Assembly: GCA_032164295.1 (NCBI GenBank)
Contig: JAJHTX010000003.1
Span: 1,798,001 to 1,862,000 of the forward strand
Direction of reading: 5' to 3'
From: Inonotus obliquus
Lineage: Eukaryota > Basidiomycota > Agaricomycetes > Hymenochaetales > Hymenochaetaceae
Length of the DNA stretch: 64,000 bases
Under the pieces are notes generated by a model. The model was given only the letters and a program-made list of their open reading frames with translations. It was not told the DNA's origin and did no database searches. This document shows, piece after piece, positions 45,556-64,000 of the stretch. Within the stretch, counting starts at the first letter, position 1. The number at the start of each line of letters is the position of its first letter. The position numbers and the translations under genes are program-made.

Positions 45556-46862
45556 TTATCCATAATCAGAAAAGAGAGGGTGGAATAGAAGAAAGAATAG
45601 CTGGGAAAGGAGTAGCAACCAGTCCACAGCCATACCGAGGTATGTTCCACCATTGATACAATAGCCCTGTCCGGTACCGAGCTTATGTAAGCAGTACCGA
45701 GGCGGTACTGAGAACAGGAGAGAGTCTTGCACAGTACTCTGGTACCGGTAGCTGCTGCGAGCCGTCGCTAGTTGCTTACCCGGGTAGGCAGGGAACGTCT
45801 GGCTGAGTTGTCTTAAAATGAGCAAGCCATAGTCGTCCTTGAACCATAGTCCATCACGTGTACCAAATACCAACGACTCCTTGGTGCTTGTAGACTTTAC
45901 AGTCACCACATTTCCCAACTCGAGAGCCCTTACTGAAGTACCGGAAATGCTTCGATGGGTCGTAGAATGAGTTCCAAGAGCTGCTGCCACCACTGAACGA
46001 ACTACCGAGCCAATACCAGGGGGTTGGTACCGATGCCGAGAGAAAAGTACCGGTACCGGTACCAGAAATCGATCGAATGAGCCAAAACGTGCAACTCCTC
46101 CAATACCGATAGAAGCTCTACTAGTTCCAGTAGATGTCGTATGGCTGACCTGAGACTCCTGGGCTGAATTCTGCCTAGTACCATAGTCCAAATGGCTGGC
46201 GTCTACCGACTTGATGTGGCTGTGCTCAGTACCGAGAGGCTGGGGAATCCCGGGTGATGAGACTTGCATAGGGGAGCAACCAATAAACGCCTTCTGAAAC
46301 TCGTACACTGGATCCAAAACTTGAGGATGGGCACCAACTAGACAAAAGATCGATGTGGGGGCCTTCCTAGCTATGCCAACAACTGGGAGAATGGGTACCG
46401 AAGAATCTGGAGCATGTACCGGGGCCTCGACAATTGCATCCTGCACTGGAACGATTGGTACCGGGGACTTGACAATTTCATCTGGCACTGGAATGACTGG
46501 TACCGGAGCCACCAATGACACTAATGAGTCGTCAGCTGGATCCATATCCTGACTGATACCAGGGTCCGGTACGTGACTGTGCACCTCAATTCCGATCGAT
46601 ACTTGATGCTCGTCCACCAGATCTATGCCTCCTAGACTCTGCACCACTTCCTGACCTAACACTTCACCTCCTGCAACCGAATCCGCTGATCCTTCCTCAA
46701 CTAACAATCTGAAACTGAGTACCGAGGGAACTTCCTCCTTCTCTGACGGCTCTCCTGCTGTCTCGGTACCAACTGCATACACGCTCCTGGGACCTCCACA
46801 CTCAACTGAAACTAACTTGCTCATCTGCCTTCTAAGCTCCTGCGACAATGCCAACAACTCGC
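45556..46862 (-). pseudogene. Retrotransposon Gag-like polyprotein, C-terminal part (separated by B2)
   Basis: About 430 codons continuing the frame broken at 48570. It begins ELLALSQELRRQMSKLVSVE and ends LLFHPLFSDYG at TAA 45556. It is Pro/Val/Ser-rich (repeats of the type VPIVPVQDAIVEAPV) and ends with a hydrophobic segment (WLLLLSQLFFLLFHPLF). No zinc knuckle, protease DTG/DSG or RT motif is visible. If the nested LTR is discounted, it follows directly on SGLTVSQR of the N-terminal part in the same frame. Confidence 0.6.
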
Positions 46863-48569
46863 TAAAGAGTAATACCGGAGGCTACGATCGATATGGGCTT
46901 AATTCTGCGATTCTACCGCTTCTTCCAATTAACAATACTTCTGCGATTCTACCGCTTCTTACTTCTCTTCGGACCACGGTACTTCTGCCGTCCTATCTAC
47001 GCCTGCGGTTCCAACAAAGTACGAGGCTTCTGCGATTCGACAAGGCTGAGAGCGATTGAGAACTGGTCCACTTCTGCACCAATACCGAATCACCAATCCC
47101 TACGCCCGTCTTCCATCATAGTACCAAACCCCGATGATACCGATACCGTACTGTCCACCCGTCCTGATACCGACGCTTAATACTCCACACCTAGTCGATA
47201 CTACGCCCTCGACAGCCCATACCATAGAAAAAGGCTCACAAAGCTGCACTCGGTCTGCCATACGTTGCTGCGAAGAGTTGGATCATGGTCGAGGTTCCAT
47301 GCCCGACGGTATGCCCTTCCGAACCGCCATGCATCGATACCGACGATACCGGTGTTGATACCGATGGTCCGCTCCGGTACCGGAGTTCGTTACGTGTGCT
47401 AGGTCGAGACCACGCAATCGGAGATCTACGTCGAGAGGAAGGTTGGGAAATGAATCAAGTCCACCGTACGCTGCTTCGATCTCGGAGGAGGCCATCGATC
47501 CGACTCGGAGGGGAAGCCAAGCAATGCCCAGTCGAGTCAGGCGACGCATACCGGTCGATATCGAGGGGCTAGAGCGATGCTCAGGGACGATCCCAGGGTA
47601 CTGATTGGTACCGAACGGTAGAGTACCCCATTGCCAAGGTTGGGTTGTACTGACACGTCAACATCGGAGCACGCCGTTCGATCGATCGGTAGACGCCCAG
47701 ACTGACGCCGCACGGATCATGATACCGGAACAAAGGTAAATCAGGATGACGTGCTTCTCCTACGACAGGGACATCGCCAGGAGCGCCCATGCGGTAGCTT
47801 GAGACACGTCCTTAATTTAGCGCTGGTCGACGTCGGTATCGCCGCCCTACCTCGGTATCACTCGTCGTGAGTTTTCATTGGGTTCTTGTCTCGTCCCACC
47901 CTATTCTTAGCTACCCCCTGATAAAACTTCTTATTCATTCATCATCTTATGTTTCCCCTGATTGTAATTTTACATTCAATTCGACCTTATGTTCCATTTC
48001 TTGTACCGGATTACGGTACGATTCGACTTGTAAAAACCTCCCATTTGGTATCTTGAATGGCTACGGTATTATGGTATTTATAGCCTGCATGTTCTACTGT
48101 AGCAAACCAGCTAATCTGAGAGGAACTTCCAGAGTGAAGGTCCGGGTTTTGCTCATCTCGTTCAAGTCCCCGTTCGTTCGTCTCGTCTCGTAGTCCCCGG
48201 TACCGATACCGGTAGTCGTCGTTCTCGTCTTCGTCGCCCCCGTCTCTCTTCTCACGACCAGTCCCATCAGAAACGCTTCCTCAGCTCGCCTCCTCTACTG
48301 CTTTGTTCTCTCTACCGTAATACCGGACACCAGACGACTCGGTATCGACGGATTCGTCTCGGTATTGATCGTCTCCTGATACCTCTCCTCTTGAGCGGTC
48401 ACCTATAGTCTCCCGTCCTCATCAATCCAGCCAGGCCCTACTATTCTCTCTTGACGACTTGTCTGTGACTGTACGACTTAGTACCGCCACGTACCGGCCC
48501 TCCCAACGCATCTAAATCGTACCCCCCTCGTCCGGTATTTCTGATACCGGCCGCGTTCTCGTACATTCA
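46863..48569 (+). mobile_element. Solo LTR, family B, copy 2 (nested in the Gag-like frame)
   Basis: 1707 bp, the inverted counterpart of copy 1. It starts TAAAGAGTAATACCGG on the + strand and ends CGTACATTCA. TCGC is duplicated on both sides (46859-46862 and 48570-48573). Discounting the insert and one TCGC restores a continuous reading frame across the site, which confirms the borders. Its sequence is nearly identical to copy 1, with scattered substitutions. Confidence 0.85.
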
Positions 48570-49761
48570 TCGCGTTGAGATACCGTAAGCCCAGATCCAA
48601 GAGGCTGATCTACCGGGGCCAGTACCGGAGACTTCCAGTCAGCTACCGAGGGCTCGTACACATCTTCTTTGGGTTTCGGGAGTGGGTCCGGCATTGCTAA
48701 GACTCTGCTGAGAGACGTGTCCTCCATATAGTAGTACTCCGGTATGGATGATCTCTCGGCGCTCTGGTACTCCGGTACTTGCAATCTCTCGGCACTCCGG
48801 TACTCCGGTACTGACAGTCTCTTGGCGCTCCGGTACTCCGGTACTGACAGTCTCTCTGCACTCCGGTACTTCCTCCTGCGTGCTTTCTCTGCCTTCTTTC
48901 GAGCCTCCTCAAGCAGAATCTCCAACCTAACGACCTCCTGATCATCTCCTACCTCCTCTGCAATTCTCTGCCTTGCAACTGGGGACTCTCGGCATTGCTG
49001 GATCAGTACCGAGACTGATACCGGGGGCGAATGGTTCACGACTACGTTTACCGAAGGCAACTCCAATGGTTCCGGTAACAACTGCTGCTCCTGTTCCAGT
49101 TCCTCTACCTGTAACTGAAGGACCTGCAACGTCTTCCAGAGTGTACTAAGGTCTGGCTCCTCCTTGACTGGCTGCAACTCAGCATTACGTAATCCGGTAC
49201 AAGGTGATTCATCGAAAAAGTCGGTACCGAGAACGTAATCAGCATGCTTATGGATCTGCTCCACTGTATATGTTGTTCCAGGCTGGGGATCGGCTTCTTT
49301 TGTCTCGAGACGTAAACAGATGCGATCCCGAAGGCTGCTTCCTCTACCGAGAGTGTACCGAGACTCTTCAGGTAGCTCCAACGCATGAGATATTTGTTCC
49401 GGTACTGGGCCAGATTGAGTCGTGTCTTGATCCCTTTGCATCTCCAGAACTCTACAAGCTGAATAACGTCTTCTCGAGTATACTGGGCTCCTTCAGACAA
49501 AATCGGGTAAAACGACTTGATGGCTGCTTTGGCCTTCGACCAATCGGTAGCAGTATCTGATGCATCTGATGAGGTCTTCCAAAGCTCGGCTACGGTGCGA
49601 GATGCATAGTATCCAGCATACCAAATCGTCTGGGCTGGGTCTAGGTTGTATTCGGCAGCTAGGTACTCTATGTCTTCAAGGTACTGGGGCAGTTCTCGTG
49701 GTTCGGTACCATCGAACGAAGGAGTGTCTTCGGTTCCGCGTCTGGGAGGACGTCCTACCAT
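48570..49761 (-). pseudogene. Retrotransposon Gag-like polyprotein, N-terminal part, frameshifted
   Basis: The start ATG 49761 (MVGRPPRRGTEDTPSFDGTE) lies 250 nt inside the primer-binding site. The Gag-type helical domain reads PRELPQYLEDIEYLAAEYNL, KAAIKSFYPILSEGAQYTRE and LNLAQYRNKYLMRWSYL, then SLGTLSVEEAAFGI. The frame then changes near 49330 to continue LRLETKEADPQPGTTYTVEQ and IHKHADYVLGTDFFDE. This is the usual Gag layout, so one frameshift is inferred. A heptad-like Glu/Gln-rich stretch, a Lys/Arg-rich linker and an 11-residue tandem repeat (VPEYRSAERLS) follow before the B2 insertion. Confidence 0.65.
48732..48868 (-). repeat. 33-bp minisatellite in the Gag-like frame
   Basis: Three and a half copies of a 33-bp unit (core CTCCGGTACTCCGGTACTG on the + strand) encoding the minus-strand peptide VPEYRSAERLS with variants (SAKRLS, SAERLQ, SAERSS). 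The repeat is in frame and rich in the GGTAC word that pervades the element. Confidence 0.8.
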
Positions 49762-50010
49762 CTTGCTCGAGTGGGGTTATACTTCTAAATTGATAACGGA
49801 GTGAAATACGAACTGAAAAGGGAAAACAACTAATGGCTGGGGGATTGTGAAGCGGCAATAAGAACAAATGCTACCGTCCGGTACCGAGGTACCGGTCTGC
49901 TGAGACTTTTACAGAGATGAACTGGACAAAACAAACTGTCGGTATTGAAAGGAAATGAAAGGGGAGTAGTCAGAATAATCAATTAGACAACAAGACACCT
50001 TGAAAACCCT

Positions 50011-60265: not shown

Positions 60266-60522
60266 ATTATCGGCCCCATCATTGGAAAGCTTCTCTTACA
60301 AAAAAACAGTCAAGGTTCTTCCAAGACTAAAAGACAGTAATTTTAATAGGAAGGCTTCCAAGGATGTCAGTGCATCTATCGGTAGCTTTGCTCCTTCAAT
60401 GTTGGCAATACAGACAACCTCTTATTTGATAACTACCTTTGCAAGTTGAAATCCATTCAACATGCTGAGCAGCACAGAGTGTTAGAAAGGTAGTATTATC
60501 CATCATTAATAAGCCAATAACT

Positions 60523-61308
60523 ATGAGCGTCCTACGTTGGATACAAGAGCGGTTAGCGGCAGTAATACAAGTACTAGAACAGCCCATCGTTCCCCCGACA
60601 CCGCGAAGCAATATACTACGATGTTGCAACACGTGCCGCCCAGCTAAAGAACTAGCTGGAGGACTAATGCGAGAATTAATCAGAGAGATCACGTACGGAG
60701 ACATAATGAACGGACAAGCCGACATAATGATACGACGTCGATTTGTAGAACTAACCTACGACCCTAACCAACAAATGCAAAAGGCTTATGAAAGGGAGAT
60801 ACGAGTATTATCCTACGACGCCGGACACTTTGTAATGATGATCGGAATACGAAACGTAGCACAGGAAGGAAGACACGAACGATGCGACGCAGCTATAGTA
60901 GATGTCGACATTGTCTACAAGCGAGACCAAGCCGGAACAAACGAGAGAACTGCATATGCTTGGGGGCATTGGATAATGAATTACATAAGTCGAGGATTAC
61001 CATATGGATATACCATAATGGAAATAAAGGTAGAACAGTACGGCGGAGTAATACACCTACAAGGAGTACAAGGGATAACCCTACAACGCGCCAGGACGAC
61101 GCCAGGATATACACGAGTGCAAACTATTCGAAACTGGCTGACTGTACCACGACCGATCCTACCGATACAAACGAGACCCGAAATACAAGCAAGGGGAGGA
61201 CAAGAACAGATGACTCAGCAATTACCTAGAATAGCTGAATTAGATCAAGTGCCGTTACCGGCACAGGAATCAAACCTGTCTACAAGATGGTACCGCCCAC
61301 TACACTAA
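60523..61308 (+). CDS. Hypothetical 261-residue protein upstream of the TATA box
   Basis: An uninterrupted frame from a true ATG (MSVLRWIQERLAAVIQVLEQ) to TAA 61308. Features are a Cys-rich spot (RCCNTC), a charged helix (ELAGGLMRELIREITYGDIM), a central beta-rich part (DAGHFVMMIGIRNVAQEGRH, AAIVDVDIVYKRDQAG, GHWIMNYISRGLPYGYTIME, VEQYGGVIHLQGVQGITLQR) and a Pro/Gln-rich tail. No signal peptide, membrane helix or known motif is seen. Unlike its left flank the frame is intact. It is followed after about 150 bp by a TATA box reading the same way, so it could lie in the U3 part of an LTR, or be the 3'-terminal ORF of a preceding copy. Confidence 0.6.
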   Translation: MSVLRWIQERLAAVIQVLEQPIVPPTPRSNILRCCNTCRPAKELAGGLMRELIREITYGDIMNGQADIMIRRRFVELTYDPNQQMQKAYEREIRVLSYDAGHFVMMIGIRNVAQEGRHERCDAAIVDVDIVYKRDQAGTNERTAYAWGHWIMNYISRGLPYGYTIMEIKVEQYGGVIHLQGVQGITLQRARTTPGYTRVQTIRNWLTVPRPILPIQTRPEIQARGGQEQMTQQLPRIAELDQVPLPAQESNLSTRWYRPLH

Positions 61309-61455
61309 ACGAATCAAGGAGAGGCTAGTAACACAGAGGTAGTGAAATGAGGAAGGAAGTAAAGAGAAAGCACGGACCAGGTAACATAGAGGAAGAAACA
61401 GATAAATACCATAAACAGTAAGTAACAAGGTAGTAACGTCACACATGTAAATTAG

Positions 61456-61462
61456 TATATAA
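61456..61462 (+). promoter_or_regulatory. TATA box
   Basis: TATATAA followed by GGAGG, in a non-coding stretch just after the 261-codon ORF. Transcription would be expected to start near 61485-61495. The last ATG on the + strand in this window is at 61445-61447, immediately upstream, so the AUG-free stretch matches the predicted transcript. Confidence 0.55.
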
Positions 61463-61807
61463 GGAGGCCATCGTAGAGCCGACCTAGTAGTTTAATCCAA
61501 GTCAAGGGACCCTACCATAAGTCCCTAAGTTAAATCGTAACATCAATTACTTGCGAGCCAGTAAATTACCAGTAGCGACACGGCTGAACTAAACCGATTG
61601 TGTGAAATCGAAGTAAAGCTAAAAATACGGATTGCAACTAGATTGTTCTCCCTATTGTCTGCACGGTACGAGCTACTCACAACGTAGTGCGATTCCCGAT
61701 ATTCCCTTATCGTGAATAACAATCAGTATAACAATCGCGTCTGCACGCCGACTTAATACTGTACGATTATAGTATCAGGTTCAACTGCAATATTAGTTAG
61801 TTGCTAG

Positions 61808-61990
61808 TTGTTTCAGATCGGATCAGCTACACAGTCCACTAAGGTGATTAGCAATTCCATAACCAGTATTGTAGAATTTGGATTAACCCCTCAAACCGAG
61901 GAATTAGCCAGATTGGTCCGTCGATTAAGAATCAACGAACCCTCCACGGAGATAAACATCTGGATTAAACTCCCTTCTTGGCAAGCTTAA
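61808..61990 (+). other. Short Met-free open frame in the AUG desert
   Basis: A protein-like stretch after a TTTCAG acceptor at 61815: TQSTKVISNSITSIVEFGLT, PQTEELARLVRRLRINEPST, EINIWIKLPSWQA and then TAA. It has no ATG. It could be an upstream exon of the long frame or an independent small ORF. The link to the next open frame (frame +1 from 61969, ending at the GTAATT donor 62021) was not resolved. Confidence 0.3.
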
Positions 61991-62085
61991 AGGAACAAGC
62001 GCAGACTACTGCCAATAAAGGTAATTGTGATAGCACGAACTAGTCATTCAAATAGACTGATTGAATAATTCCCTTATCCAATCAG

Positions 62086-64000
62086 TAGGCCACCTGGAAC
62101 GGCAAATAGACATCAGTAACAACCACCGAAACCTAGAACCACAGGTCGGGTTAACATTGGAGCGTACAAAACAAACGCAGGAACGAGAACGAGGAGCGCC
62201 GAAGGATATAGACGCGTGGAAGCTAATAGCGAGGCAACCAATTTGGCAAGATCTCTACTGGGATCATTTCAAGACAGGAAGGGTTATAGGCAAGGTATCA
62301 CCTACACCACACGAGAGTGTATTTAAGAGAGCACTAGAAAACGGAGGAGGAACGTTGTACTCCGCGCAAGCACACGCCAACCTATTACACCGAATACTAC
62401 TAGCCCTACTTAACGGAAAGAAAGAGAAAGCAAAAGCAAGTAAAGTATAAGCACAAAAATCGAATATATAATTAAATATAACTATAGTGGCTTACGAAGG
62501 AATATACGCGGGGCTGGTTACAGTATTCATATTTGGTACGATCTACTATAGGACAGCGATTGCAAGTGCGCTCAGACGAGGAACAAGACTACTTCAATAC
62601 CTGTCTATTTACGAACCCTACGCAACGCAGTGGGGGATATATCACTACTCAACTGCCATTGGAACGCAAGTGGACCGATTGGCCAGAAGGATCGAACTAA
62701 TCCTCAACACACAGGCTGAAAAGGATCAAGCATTGGGAGTGTACCTAGACCATCAGTTCAATCAACATATCGAGAAACATAGCCGCTGGCACAGGAGTAA
62801 CGACGAGGCACACCATATCACCAGAACGTTAGTAAGGTACAACCAGACAGAGCTAGGCATCCTCAGGACAAGAACGAGAGAAGTACAACATACCTTCGAA
62901 ACGCTACAACGAAGACAAGAAGAGCACATAGAGCGGTGGACTGCCCGAGAACACCGAGACGCCGAATTTCAGCGCGAACTATTAGATAAAGTAAGCCGCA
63001 TCGAGACAAACTTCCTACGCCTAAGGAATCAAGTGTCGGATATCAGAGTCGCACTCGCTGCGTGGGAAGGAGAAGAGAGACAGCGGGAGGAAACGGAAAT
63101 CCAACAAGACTGGAACACCGTTGGATCGTTATTAGGAGACGATCAAGATCAACCAACGCCGGAACTAACTCAGTCCGAAGCCAGTTGGGAATCACCGAAC
63201 GAATCGGAGCAGAACGGAGGAGAGTGGGGAACAGGGAGCCGTTGGGCAAATTCAGAACCAAACGGGTTTAGGGACTTCAACGGAGACGAAAGTTACAGGC
63301 ACCCAGACTCGCCAATTCCCACTATTCCAGACGAGGAACCGGAAGAAGGAGAGATACAATTACACGTAGTCGACTTCAGGGCCCAGACGGAAAACGAAAG
63401 TGAGAACCTAACTACAATCACGGAGGAAGAAGAAGGCATTAACCAAGAAAGTAGTACCTCCAGGGTTACATTTGATAACGGGAGAAGACTACCAAGCGGC
63501 ATTAACGTTACTCGAGATCAGACAGGGAACGTCCGCATAGACCTGCGAGGATTGGCTAGGTTAAACATAAACGAGATAGTCGAGGAAGTAATTACAGAGC
63601 TACAAGAAGAACTAAAACCGACAAACGAACAAATCCCAACAATAACCATTAGTCGCAAATATCATCGAAAAGCAGATCAGGACAGAATAGTTAAAGGAAT
63701 CATAGGTCGAATCCGAGAACAAAGGGAAGCGAACAATAGGAAAGAAGAAACCAGAGAAGTCCAGAAAACCGAACGAGAACAGGGGATAATTGAAGAGGTA
63801 GAAACGAGAGGAAGGTTGGTATTGTATTATTCCCCAGGATCCACGACCAGTGGCAATTCAGAAGAATTCTCCAGCTCATTCAGCGACGTTAGTCAAGCCC
63901 ACAGTAGCAACACCACAGAAGACGAATACCTAGAAGACAATTATCGAAGGCATTTAGCGTTACTAGAATTCGACCCAGCGGAACTCGAAATCTCGGAACA
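62086..64000 (+). CDS. Met-free long open frame, partial, unknown protein
   Basis: Two open frames in the same phase: 62086-62439 (GHLERQIDISNNHRNLEPQV, DAWKLIARQPIWQDLYWDHF, SAQAHANLLHRILLALLNGK) and 62488 to the window end. They are separated by stops at 62448 and 62469, which a 48-nt GTAAAG...CTATAG intron (62440-62487) would remove in frame. The junction codon would be ATG and would be the only Met. The second part starts AYEGIYAGLVTVFIFGTIYY, a possible membrane helix, then a long coiled coil (KVSRIETNFLRLRNQVSDIR), an acidic Asn/Glu-rich region, and NINEIVEEVITELQEELKPT. No known domain. An upstream acceptor at 62084-62085 (donor GTAATT at 62021) suggests further 5' exons. How it is initiated is unknown. 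Confidence 0.5.

What the first reader, a model, noticed from the sequence alone, without database searches (positions are those of the whole stretch)
61448..64000. A 2.55-kb strand-specific AUG desert that starts at a TATA box
From 61448 to the end of the window I find no ATG on the + strand in any frame, including across line boundaries. By chance a triplet would appear about forty times in 2553 nt. The reverse triplet CAT occurs about thirty times on the same strand, so base composition does not explain it. Upstream, the 261-codon ORF and its flank (60523-61447) contain well over ten ATG. The desert begins within 10 nt of TATATAA 61456, so it coincides with the predicted transcript. Selection against AUG in a sense RNA fits scanning ribosomes that must reach a distant start, non-AUG initiation, or an AUG made only by splicing. 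Extended AUG-poor leaders and short ORFs read by leaky scanning are known in some plant pararetroviruses. I know of no fungal element with such a long one.
Basis: partly seen in the sequence, partly recalled or inferred. Interest (0 to 1): 0.92.

Follow-up and report, generated by a model that had tools for sequence, protein, structure and literature searches.

The report
AUG-cleared leader of fungal retrotransposon
A young retrotransposon in a fungal genome keeps about the first 2.5 kilobases of its predicted RNA free of the normal start codon AUG, although two conserved proteins are encoded there, apparently so that ribosomes can start weakly at other codons and still travel on to the capsid gene.

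Summary
Confirmed and strengthened. There is no + strand ATG from 61446 to the window end; the desert runs on to 64038 and stops exactly at the gag start codon, 64039. The element is an 11.3-kb Ty3/gypsy chromovirus with 16 near-complete matches to ORF B in the same genome. An 11-nt self-priming match places the RNA start at 61489, 33 nt after TATATAA. Inside lie two ORFs without Met codons, ORF A (129 codons) and ORF B (532 codons from its likely GUG), both evolving as proteins (pN/pS 0.18, 0.16; gag 0.14). In 14 uninterrupted copies the interval holds 5 ATGs in 35.7 kb, each private to one copy. A second family (ORF B 34% identical) repeats the layout with 2 ATGs against 24 expected; a third, distant family has one conserved ATG, in weak context, opening an unrelated upstream ORF. 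Best reading: polycistronic leaky scanning as in rice tungro bacilliform virus, but over 2.55 kb instead of 0.9 kb, with non-AUG starts for both upstream proteins. No RNA or ribosome data were available, and no relative outside this genome could be read.

The parts
60477..61958 (+). 5' LTR (3' copy at 70342-71823, beyond the window)
   Evidence: 1482-bp direct repeat, 3 mismatches
60523..61308 (+). 261-codon ORF inside the LTR, upstream of the promoter; carries normal numbers of ATG
   Evidence: pN/pS 0.31 over its last 315 nt; no homolog found
61448..64000 (+). ATG-free stretch (continues to 64038)
61456..61462 (+). TATATAA, predicted promoter element
   Evidence: sequence; kept in 12 of 14 copies by exact pattern together with the RNA-start block
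61489..61499 (+). AGTTTAATCCA, inferred RNA 5' end, self-priming arm
   Evidence: perfect complement of 61961-61971; block shared with family 2
61961..61971 (+). TGGATTAAACT, inferred primer-binding site 2 nt behind the LTR
62021..62085 (+). Intron-like block GTAATT..CTGAT..CAG, unproven
   Evidence: sequence; pattern kept with the same length in 14 of 14 copies and in family 2
62061..62450 (+). ORF A, stop to stop, 129 codons, no Met; start codon unknown
   Evidence: pN/pS 0.18; 30% identical in family 2
62487..64000 (+). ORF B from its likely GUG start (532 codons, ends 64082, stop follows), no Met, N-terminal hydrophobic segment
   Evidence: pN/pS 0.16; open in 13 of 14 copies; ATAGTGGCTTAC shared with family 2 and present in 14 of 14 copies; hydropathy

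Best explanation
This is the 5' part of a young Ty3/gypsy chromovirus whose full-length RNA works as a polycistronic mRNA read by leaky scanning. The RNA starts near 61489. Ribosomes scan 2550 nt without meeting an AUG. A fraction starts at non-AUG codons and makes protein A and the probably membrane-anchored protein B (most likely from the GUG at 62487, in good context); the rest passes on and starts at the first AUG, that of gag (64039). An AUG arising in the interval would capture ribosomes and cost gag, so it is removed by selection. Shown by sequence: the AUG-free interval, its end at gag, coding selection on A and B, the repeat of the pattern in other families. Inferred: the RNA 5' end, scanning, the GUG start, the membrane location, any function of A and B.
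For: ATG 0 against 23.5 expected, CAT 30 against 36.4. First ATG after the interval is the gag start in 14 of 14 copies. pN/pS 0.18 (ORF A), 0.16 (ORF B), 0.14 (gag), against 0.93 and 2.07 for ORF B read in the other frames. Variants shared by 2 or more copies: 0 new ATG, 4.25 expected, Poisson 0.014; singletons: 5, expected 4.8. Out-of-frame ATG in synonymous shuffles: ORF B 0 against 10.5 (0 of 5000), family 2 ORF B 1 against 7.4 (3 of 5000). Family 2: 2 ATG against 24.0. Family 3: one conserved ATG in weak context (TAT ATG C) opening a 293-codon ORF with pN/pS 0.11, then gag in strong context (ACA ATG G); 7 of 11 copies have no other.
Against: No transcript, ribosome or peptide data. Over all variants the ATG deficit is weak (5 against 9.1, P 0.11), and among shared variants CGA, TCG and GTC are also at zero with 2.8-3.9 expected. 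ORF A alone is less telling (175 of 5000 shuffles as low; family 2 50 of 5000; family 3 ORF 301 of 5000). Family 2 has a 4-codon uORF in good context and a second ATG late in ORF B. No shared start codon could be named for ORF A. One of 14 copies has a stop in ORF B. The leader is strongly structured (z -4.7, 20 shuffles), which hinders scanning.
Confidence: 0.8

Rival explanations
1. Splicing supplies the starts: ORFs A and B are translated from spliced RNAs whose AUG comes from an upstream exon or a junction, and gag from another RNA.
For: An intron-like block at 62021-62085 is kept in 14 of 14 copies and in family 2. If it is removed, one exon-1 frame joins ORF A in both families (read off by eye).
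Against: There is no AUG between the inferred RNA start and gag, and the predicted junction AAAG-TAGG makes none. Splicing gives no reason to clear AUG from 1.5 kb of ORF B in all frames.
Confidence: 0.1
2. Ribosomes reach gag by shunting or internal entry over the structured leader, and non-AUG starts are a side effect.
For: Leader fold z -4.7 in family 1 and -3.3 in family 2, 20 shuffles each; family 2 has a short uORF near the 5' end.
Against: A route that skips ORF B would not need AUG clearance inside ORF B. Family 1 has no AUG uORF to launch the known kind of shunt. Shunting over the leader followed by scanning through ORFs A and B, as in RTBV, is not excluded.
Confidence: 0.05
3. Termination and reinitiation: ribosomes that finish ORF B restart at gag.
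For: In family 2 ORF B ends 24 nt before the gag AUG.
Against: In family 1 ORF B runs 44 nt past the gag AUG, and reinitiation after a 500-codon ORF does not call for out-of-frame AUG clearance.
Confidence: 0.03
4. Chance, base composition, or avoidance of Met in the proteins.
For: The stretch is A-rich and T-poor, which lowers the expectation.
Against: 23.5 expected and 0 found, CAT near normal; out-of-frame ATG is missing too, 0 of 5000 shuffles; the non-coding LTR part is also free (0 against 6.4); other families repeat it.
Confidence: 0.01

Closest known systems
Rice tungro bacilliform virus and badnaviruses (Caulimoviridae), leaky scanning (PMC5902531, passages seen)
   Same: Long upstream ORFs cleared of internal AUGs; a non-AUG start for the first ORF; a later ORF reached by scanning.
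   Different: RTBV scans 900 nt and only ORF I lacks an AUG start; here 2550 nt and both upstream ORFs lack AUG. The element has LTRs, integrase and chromodomain and is no pararetrovirus.
Fungal Ty3/gypsy chromoviruses (PMC2864245, passages seen)
   Same: Gag, PR, RT, RNase H, integrase, chromodomain; a figure legend mentions additional ORFs of unknown function in some elements.
   Different: The passages seen describe one or two ORFs for most elements and no AUG-free leader.
MDG1 group of insect Ty3 elements with sORF1 and sORF2 upstream of gag (PMC11952523, preprint, passages seen)
   Same: Two accessory ORFs between RNA start and gag on an unspliced RNA; the second carries a transmembrane segment.
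   Different: About 110 and 70 aa; ORF B here has 532 codons, a long hydrophilic tail and no AUG. Function here unknown.
Tf1-type self-primed elements (recalled; self-priming in general)
   Same: RNA 5' end complementary to a site just behind the LTR, 11 nt.
   Different: Not shown biochemically here; Tf1 has no such upstream ORFs (recalled).

Membership tests
Ty3/gypsy chromovirus (Metaviridae) | LTRs around gag and PR-RT-RH-INT with chromodomain | tested here: met
   LTR pair; Ty3_capsid, zf-CCHC, protease, RVT_1, RNase H, H2C2, rve, Chromo
Self-primed Ty3 element (Tf1 type) | RNA 5' end complementary to the primer-binding site behind the LTR | tested here: met
   11-nt perfect complement, 33 nt after TATA; family 3 has its own 16-nt pair. 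RNA 5' end not mapped.
RTBV-like leaky-scanning mRNA (mechanism) | Upstream coding ORFs free of internal AUGs before the main ORF | tested here: met
RTBV-like leaky-scanning mRNA (mechanism) | Fraction of ribosomes starts at a non-AUG codon, the rest scans on | not testable with these tools
   Needs ribosome profiling or reporters; GUG at 62487 is only a candidate
Caulimoviridae (Tungrovirus, Badnavirus) | No LTRs and no integrase | tested here: not met
   LTRs and integrase core present
MDG1-type sORF elements | Two accessory ORFs upstream of gag | tested here: met
   ORFs A and B
MDG1-type sORF elements | sORF2: short (about 70 aa) transmembrane protein | tested here: not met
   ORF B is 502-532 aa without AUG; only an N-terminal hydrophobic segment is alike in kind

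The most novel reading that the evidence does not exclude
A group of fungal Ty3 elements has independently evolved an RTBV-like genome strategy: two accessory proteins, both started at non-AUG codons, are read from the same RNA as gag and pol, and 2.55 kb of RNA (leader plus both genes) is held free of AUG by selection, the longest scanned AUG-free stretch I know of. Within one genome it exists in graded forms: no AUG at all, a 4-codon uORF plus one late AUG, and a weak AUG opening an unrelated upstream gene.
Probability: 0.6. Interest if true: 0.82.

Novelty: new variant of a known kind. Interest (0 to 1): 0.76.

Why it matters
Genes without an AUG are easily missed by gene finders that ask for one; here two conserved proteins of a young element have none. 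The element offers a natural test of how far a fungal small ribosomal subunit can scan and how often it starts at GUG or similar codons, with three families as ready variants. It also suggests that accessory genes in front of gag, known from insect elements and plant pararetroviruses, occur in fungi and can be found by looking for strand-specific AUG deserts.

Tried and rejected
Homologs of ORF B (7989 best-sharing candidates scored) and of the LTR ORF (449 candidates) in the protein collection: none at E 1e-3. Pfam on ORF A, ORF B and the LTR ORF: only a sub-threshold DUF4948 match (E 0.14) to ORF B. PDB sequences for the LTR ORF: none. Relatives in viral contigs (two scans) and prokaryote genomes (one scan): none confirmed. 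Single-sequence fold of the LTR ORF: mean pLDDT 47, not used for a fold search. Homology of ORF B with the upstream ORF of family 3: none by hhalign. A conserved stop in pol as a read-through signal: the TGA context near 66195 was found in 2 of 8 loci searched with one pattern, so it was dropped. L046 (gag 32%, with stops) was fetched as a further relative; it shows no desert. L047 was fetched as a control and turned out to be family 3. The first alignment of copies was discarded because minus-strand loci had not been turned.

Rows dropped: of 16 near-complete ORF B matches, L026 and L036 were left out because their leader does not align with the rest (their matches are split); 14 remain. One further short match, L041, was not used. 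For family 3, 11 of the 16 similar gag rows were read. My pN/pS script tests single changes only and missed one ORF B stop made by two changes in a codon of L027.

Full report
Observation. No + strand ATG starts from 61446 to 64000, while CAT occurs 30 times in 61448-64000. The window is G000:C3:1798001-1862000 of a 36-Mb assembly. Reading on in the genome, the next ATG is at 64039. Over 61448-64038 ATG is the only missing triplet; 23.5 are expected from the stretch's own dinucleotides.

What it is. The 1482-bp stretch 60477-61958 recurs at 70342-71823 with 3 mismatches: these are LTRs. The internal region encodes gag (Ty3 capsid, zinc knuckle), protease, RT, RNase H, integrase and a chromodomain. 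The element is therefore a Ty3/gypsy chromovirus of about 11.3 kb. Among the 120 best RT matches listed, the nearest named ones are from Sanghuangporus, a basidiomycete genus (55-56%); two unnamed proteins reach 60%. The host itself is not identified.

Where the RNA starts. AGTTTAATCCA at 61489-61499 is the perfect complement of 61961-61971, two bases behind the LTR. This is the arrangement of self-primed Tf1-like elements (recalled; self-priming is mentioned in PMC2864245), in which the RNA 5' end primes reverse transcription. It lies 33 nt after the start of TATATAA. Family 2 keeps the same block. Family 3 has its own 16-nt pair, 34 nt behind its TATA box; by exact patterns both arms are present in 8 of 10 further copies. 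The inferred RNA is therefore AUG-free for 2550 nt, up to the gag AUG.

What lies in the desert. After about 570 nt of leader come ORF A (62061-62450) and ORF B (62472-64082 stop to stop), both without Met. Among 14 copies pN/pS is 0.18 for ORF A, 0.16 for ORF B and 0.14 for gag; ORF B read in the two other frames gives 0.93 and 2.07. Gaps in ORF B are of 6 and 3 nt, and ORF B is open in 13 of 14 copies. These look like real proteins. ORF B begins with a hydrophobic segment (best 19-residue Kyte-Doolittle mean 1.6 in family 1, 2.15 in family 2). Protein similarity between families 1 and 2 begins at a shared ATAGTGGCTTAC, present in 14 of 14 copies. Its GTG has A at -3 and G at +4 and is the best candidate start. 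For ORF A no shared start codon could be named.

Selection against AUG. In the 14 copies the interval 61489-64038 sums to 35,656 nt with 5 ATG, each in one copy only. Among variants shared by at least two copies 0 create ATG where 4.25 were expected (Poisson 0.014); CGA, TCG and GTC are also at zero there, with 2.8-3.9 expected. Among singletons 5 create ATG where 4.8 were expected. This fits mutations that arise freely after insertion but do not spread; over all variants the deficit is weak (5 against 9.1, P 0.11). Synonymous shuffles of ORF B average 10.5 out-of-frame ATG and 0 of 5000 give zero; family 2 ORF B has 1 against 7.4 (3 of 5000 as low). ORF A alone is less telling (175 of 5000 in family 1, 50 of 5000 in family 2), as is the family 3 ORF (301 of 5000). 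Gag, PR, RT-IN and the LTR ORF are at expectation.

Other families. Family 2 (C6:2446.6-2457.3 kb; LTR pieces of 744 and 754 bp with 1 mismatch each) has gag 55% identical and ORF B 34% identical. Between its inferred 5' end and gag it has 2 ATG where 24.0 are expected: a 4-codon uORF in good context 149 nt from the 5' end, and one late in ORF B opening 30 codons. Its relative on C13, with broken ORFs, has 8 (26.9 expected). Family 3 (gag 24% identical) has a 293-codon ORF upstream of gag with no detected relation to ORF B. In 7 of 11 copies its start is the only ATG before gag; the other 4 carry extra ATGs, none at a position shared with another copy, and one of them (L057) is strongly diverged. 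The start context is weak (TAT-ATG-C), that of gag strong (ACA-ATG-G). This graded set is what leaky scanning predicts. Five other loci around zinc-knuckle ORFs show longest ATG gaps of 353-743 nt in about 4 kb each and ATG numbers near expectation; the 743-nt gap (L062) begins in a family 1 LTR, so that locus is not an independent control.

Mechanism. Rice tungro bacilliform virus reaches ORF III by scanning 900 nt through ORF I (AUU start, about 10% of ribosomes) and ORF II, which lack internal AUGs (PMC5902531, passages). The same logic fits here over 2550 nt. Accessory ORFs in front of gag, one with a transmembrane segment, are known in insect MDG1 elements, where sORF2 is proposed to carry capsids from cell to cell (PMC11952523, preprint, passages); a similar role for ORF B is speculation. 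The leader folds more stably than 20 shuffles (z -4.7; family 2 z -3.3), so shunting over the leader is not excluded, but it would not explain clearance of ORF B.

Novelty. Searches of an open-access library (listings read, three papers opened in passages) showed no LTR retrotransposon with such a leader; most subscription papers are not in that library. Working like RTBV is well supported by sequence; membership in Caulimoviridae is excluded. I rate it a new variant of a known kind.

Noticed in passing
window 60523-61308 and LTRs across the genome: A 261-codon ORF lies inside the LTR (U3). The protein search gave 125 matches in the genome, many in complete frames, down to about 31-48% identity; no homolog was found elsewhere. 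Its position recalls MMTV sag or Nef (recalled).
   Followed up: partly
L009:9512-9900 (window scale 69512-69900) and L010:1-355: A second TATATAAAG lies near the 3' end, followed about 100 nt later by an ORF with a strongly hydrophobic segment (Kyte-Doolittle 2.68) and an intron-like GTGCGC..CAG that would join it to an acidic ORF: possibly a separate 3' gene in env position.
   Followed up: partly
window 61489-62090; L037:432-1060: The leader RNA folds far more stably than 20 shuffles, with the 5' end paired to the primer-binding site.
   Followed up: partly
window 62021-62085: Intron-like block kept in both families. If it is removed, three 1-nt length differences between families 1 and 2 add up to one codon (read by eye).
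   Followed up: partly
L009 near 6195 (window scale 66195): In-frame TGA between the protease and RT frames; the same context was found in 2 of 8 loci searched with one pattern.
   Followed up: partly
L038, L040 (C13:493.9-498.3 kb): Broken family 2 relative in which the desert holds 8 ATGs, 6 more than the copy on C6: may show how deserts fill once selection ends.
   Followed up: partly
window 45556-49776, minus strand: Several long minus-strand ORFs that look like parts of another retroelement (impression only).
   Followed up: no
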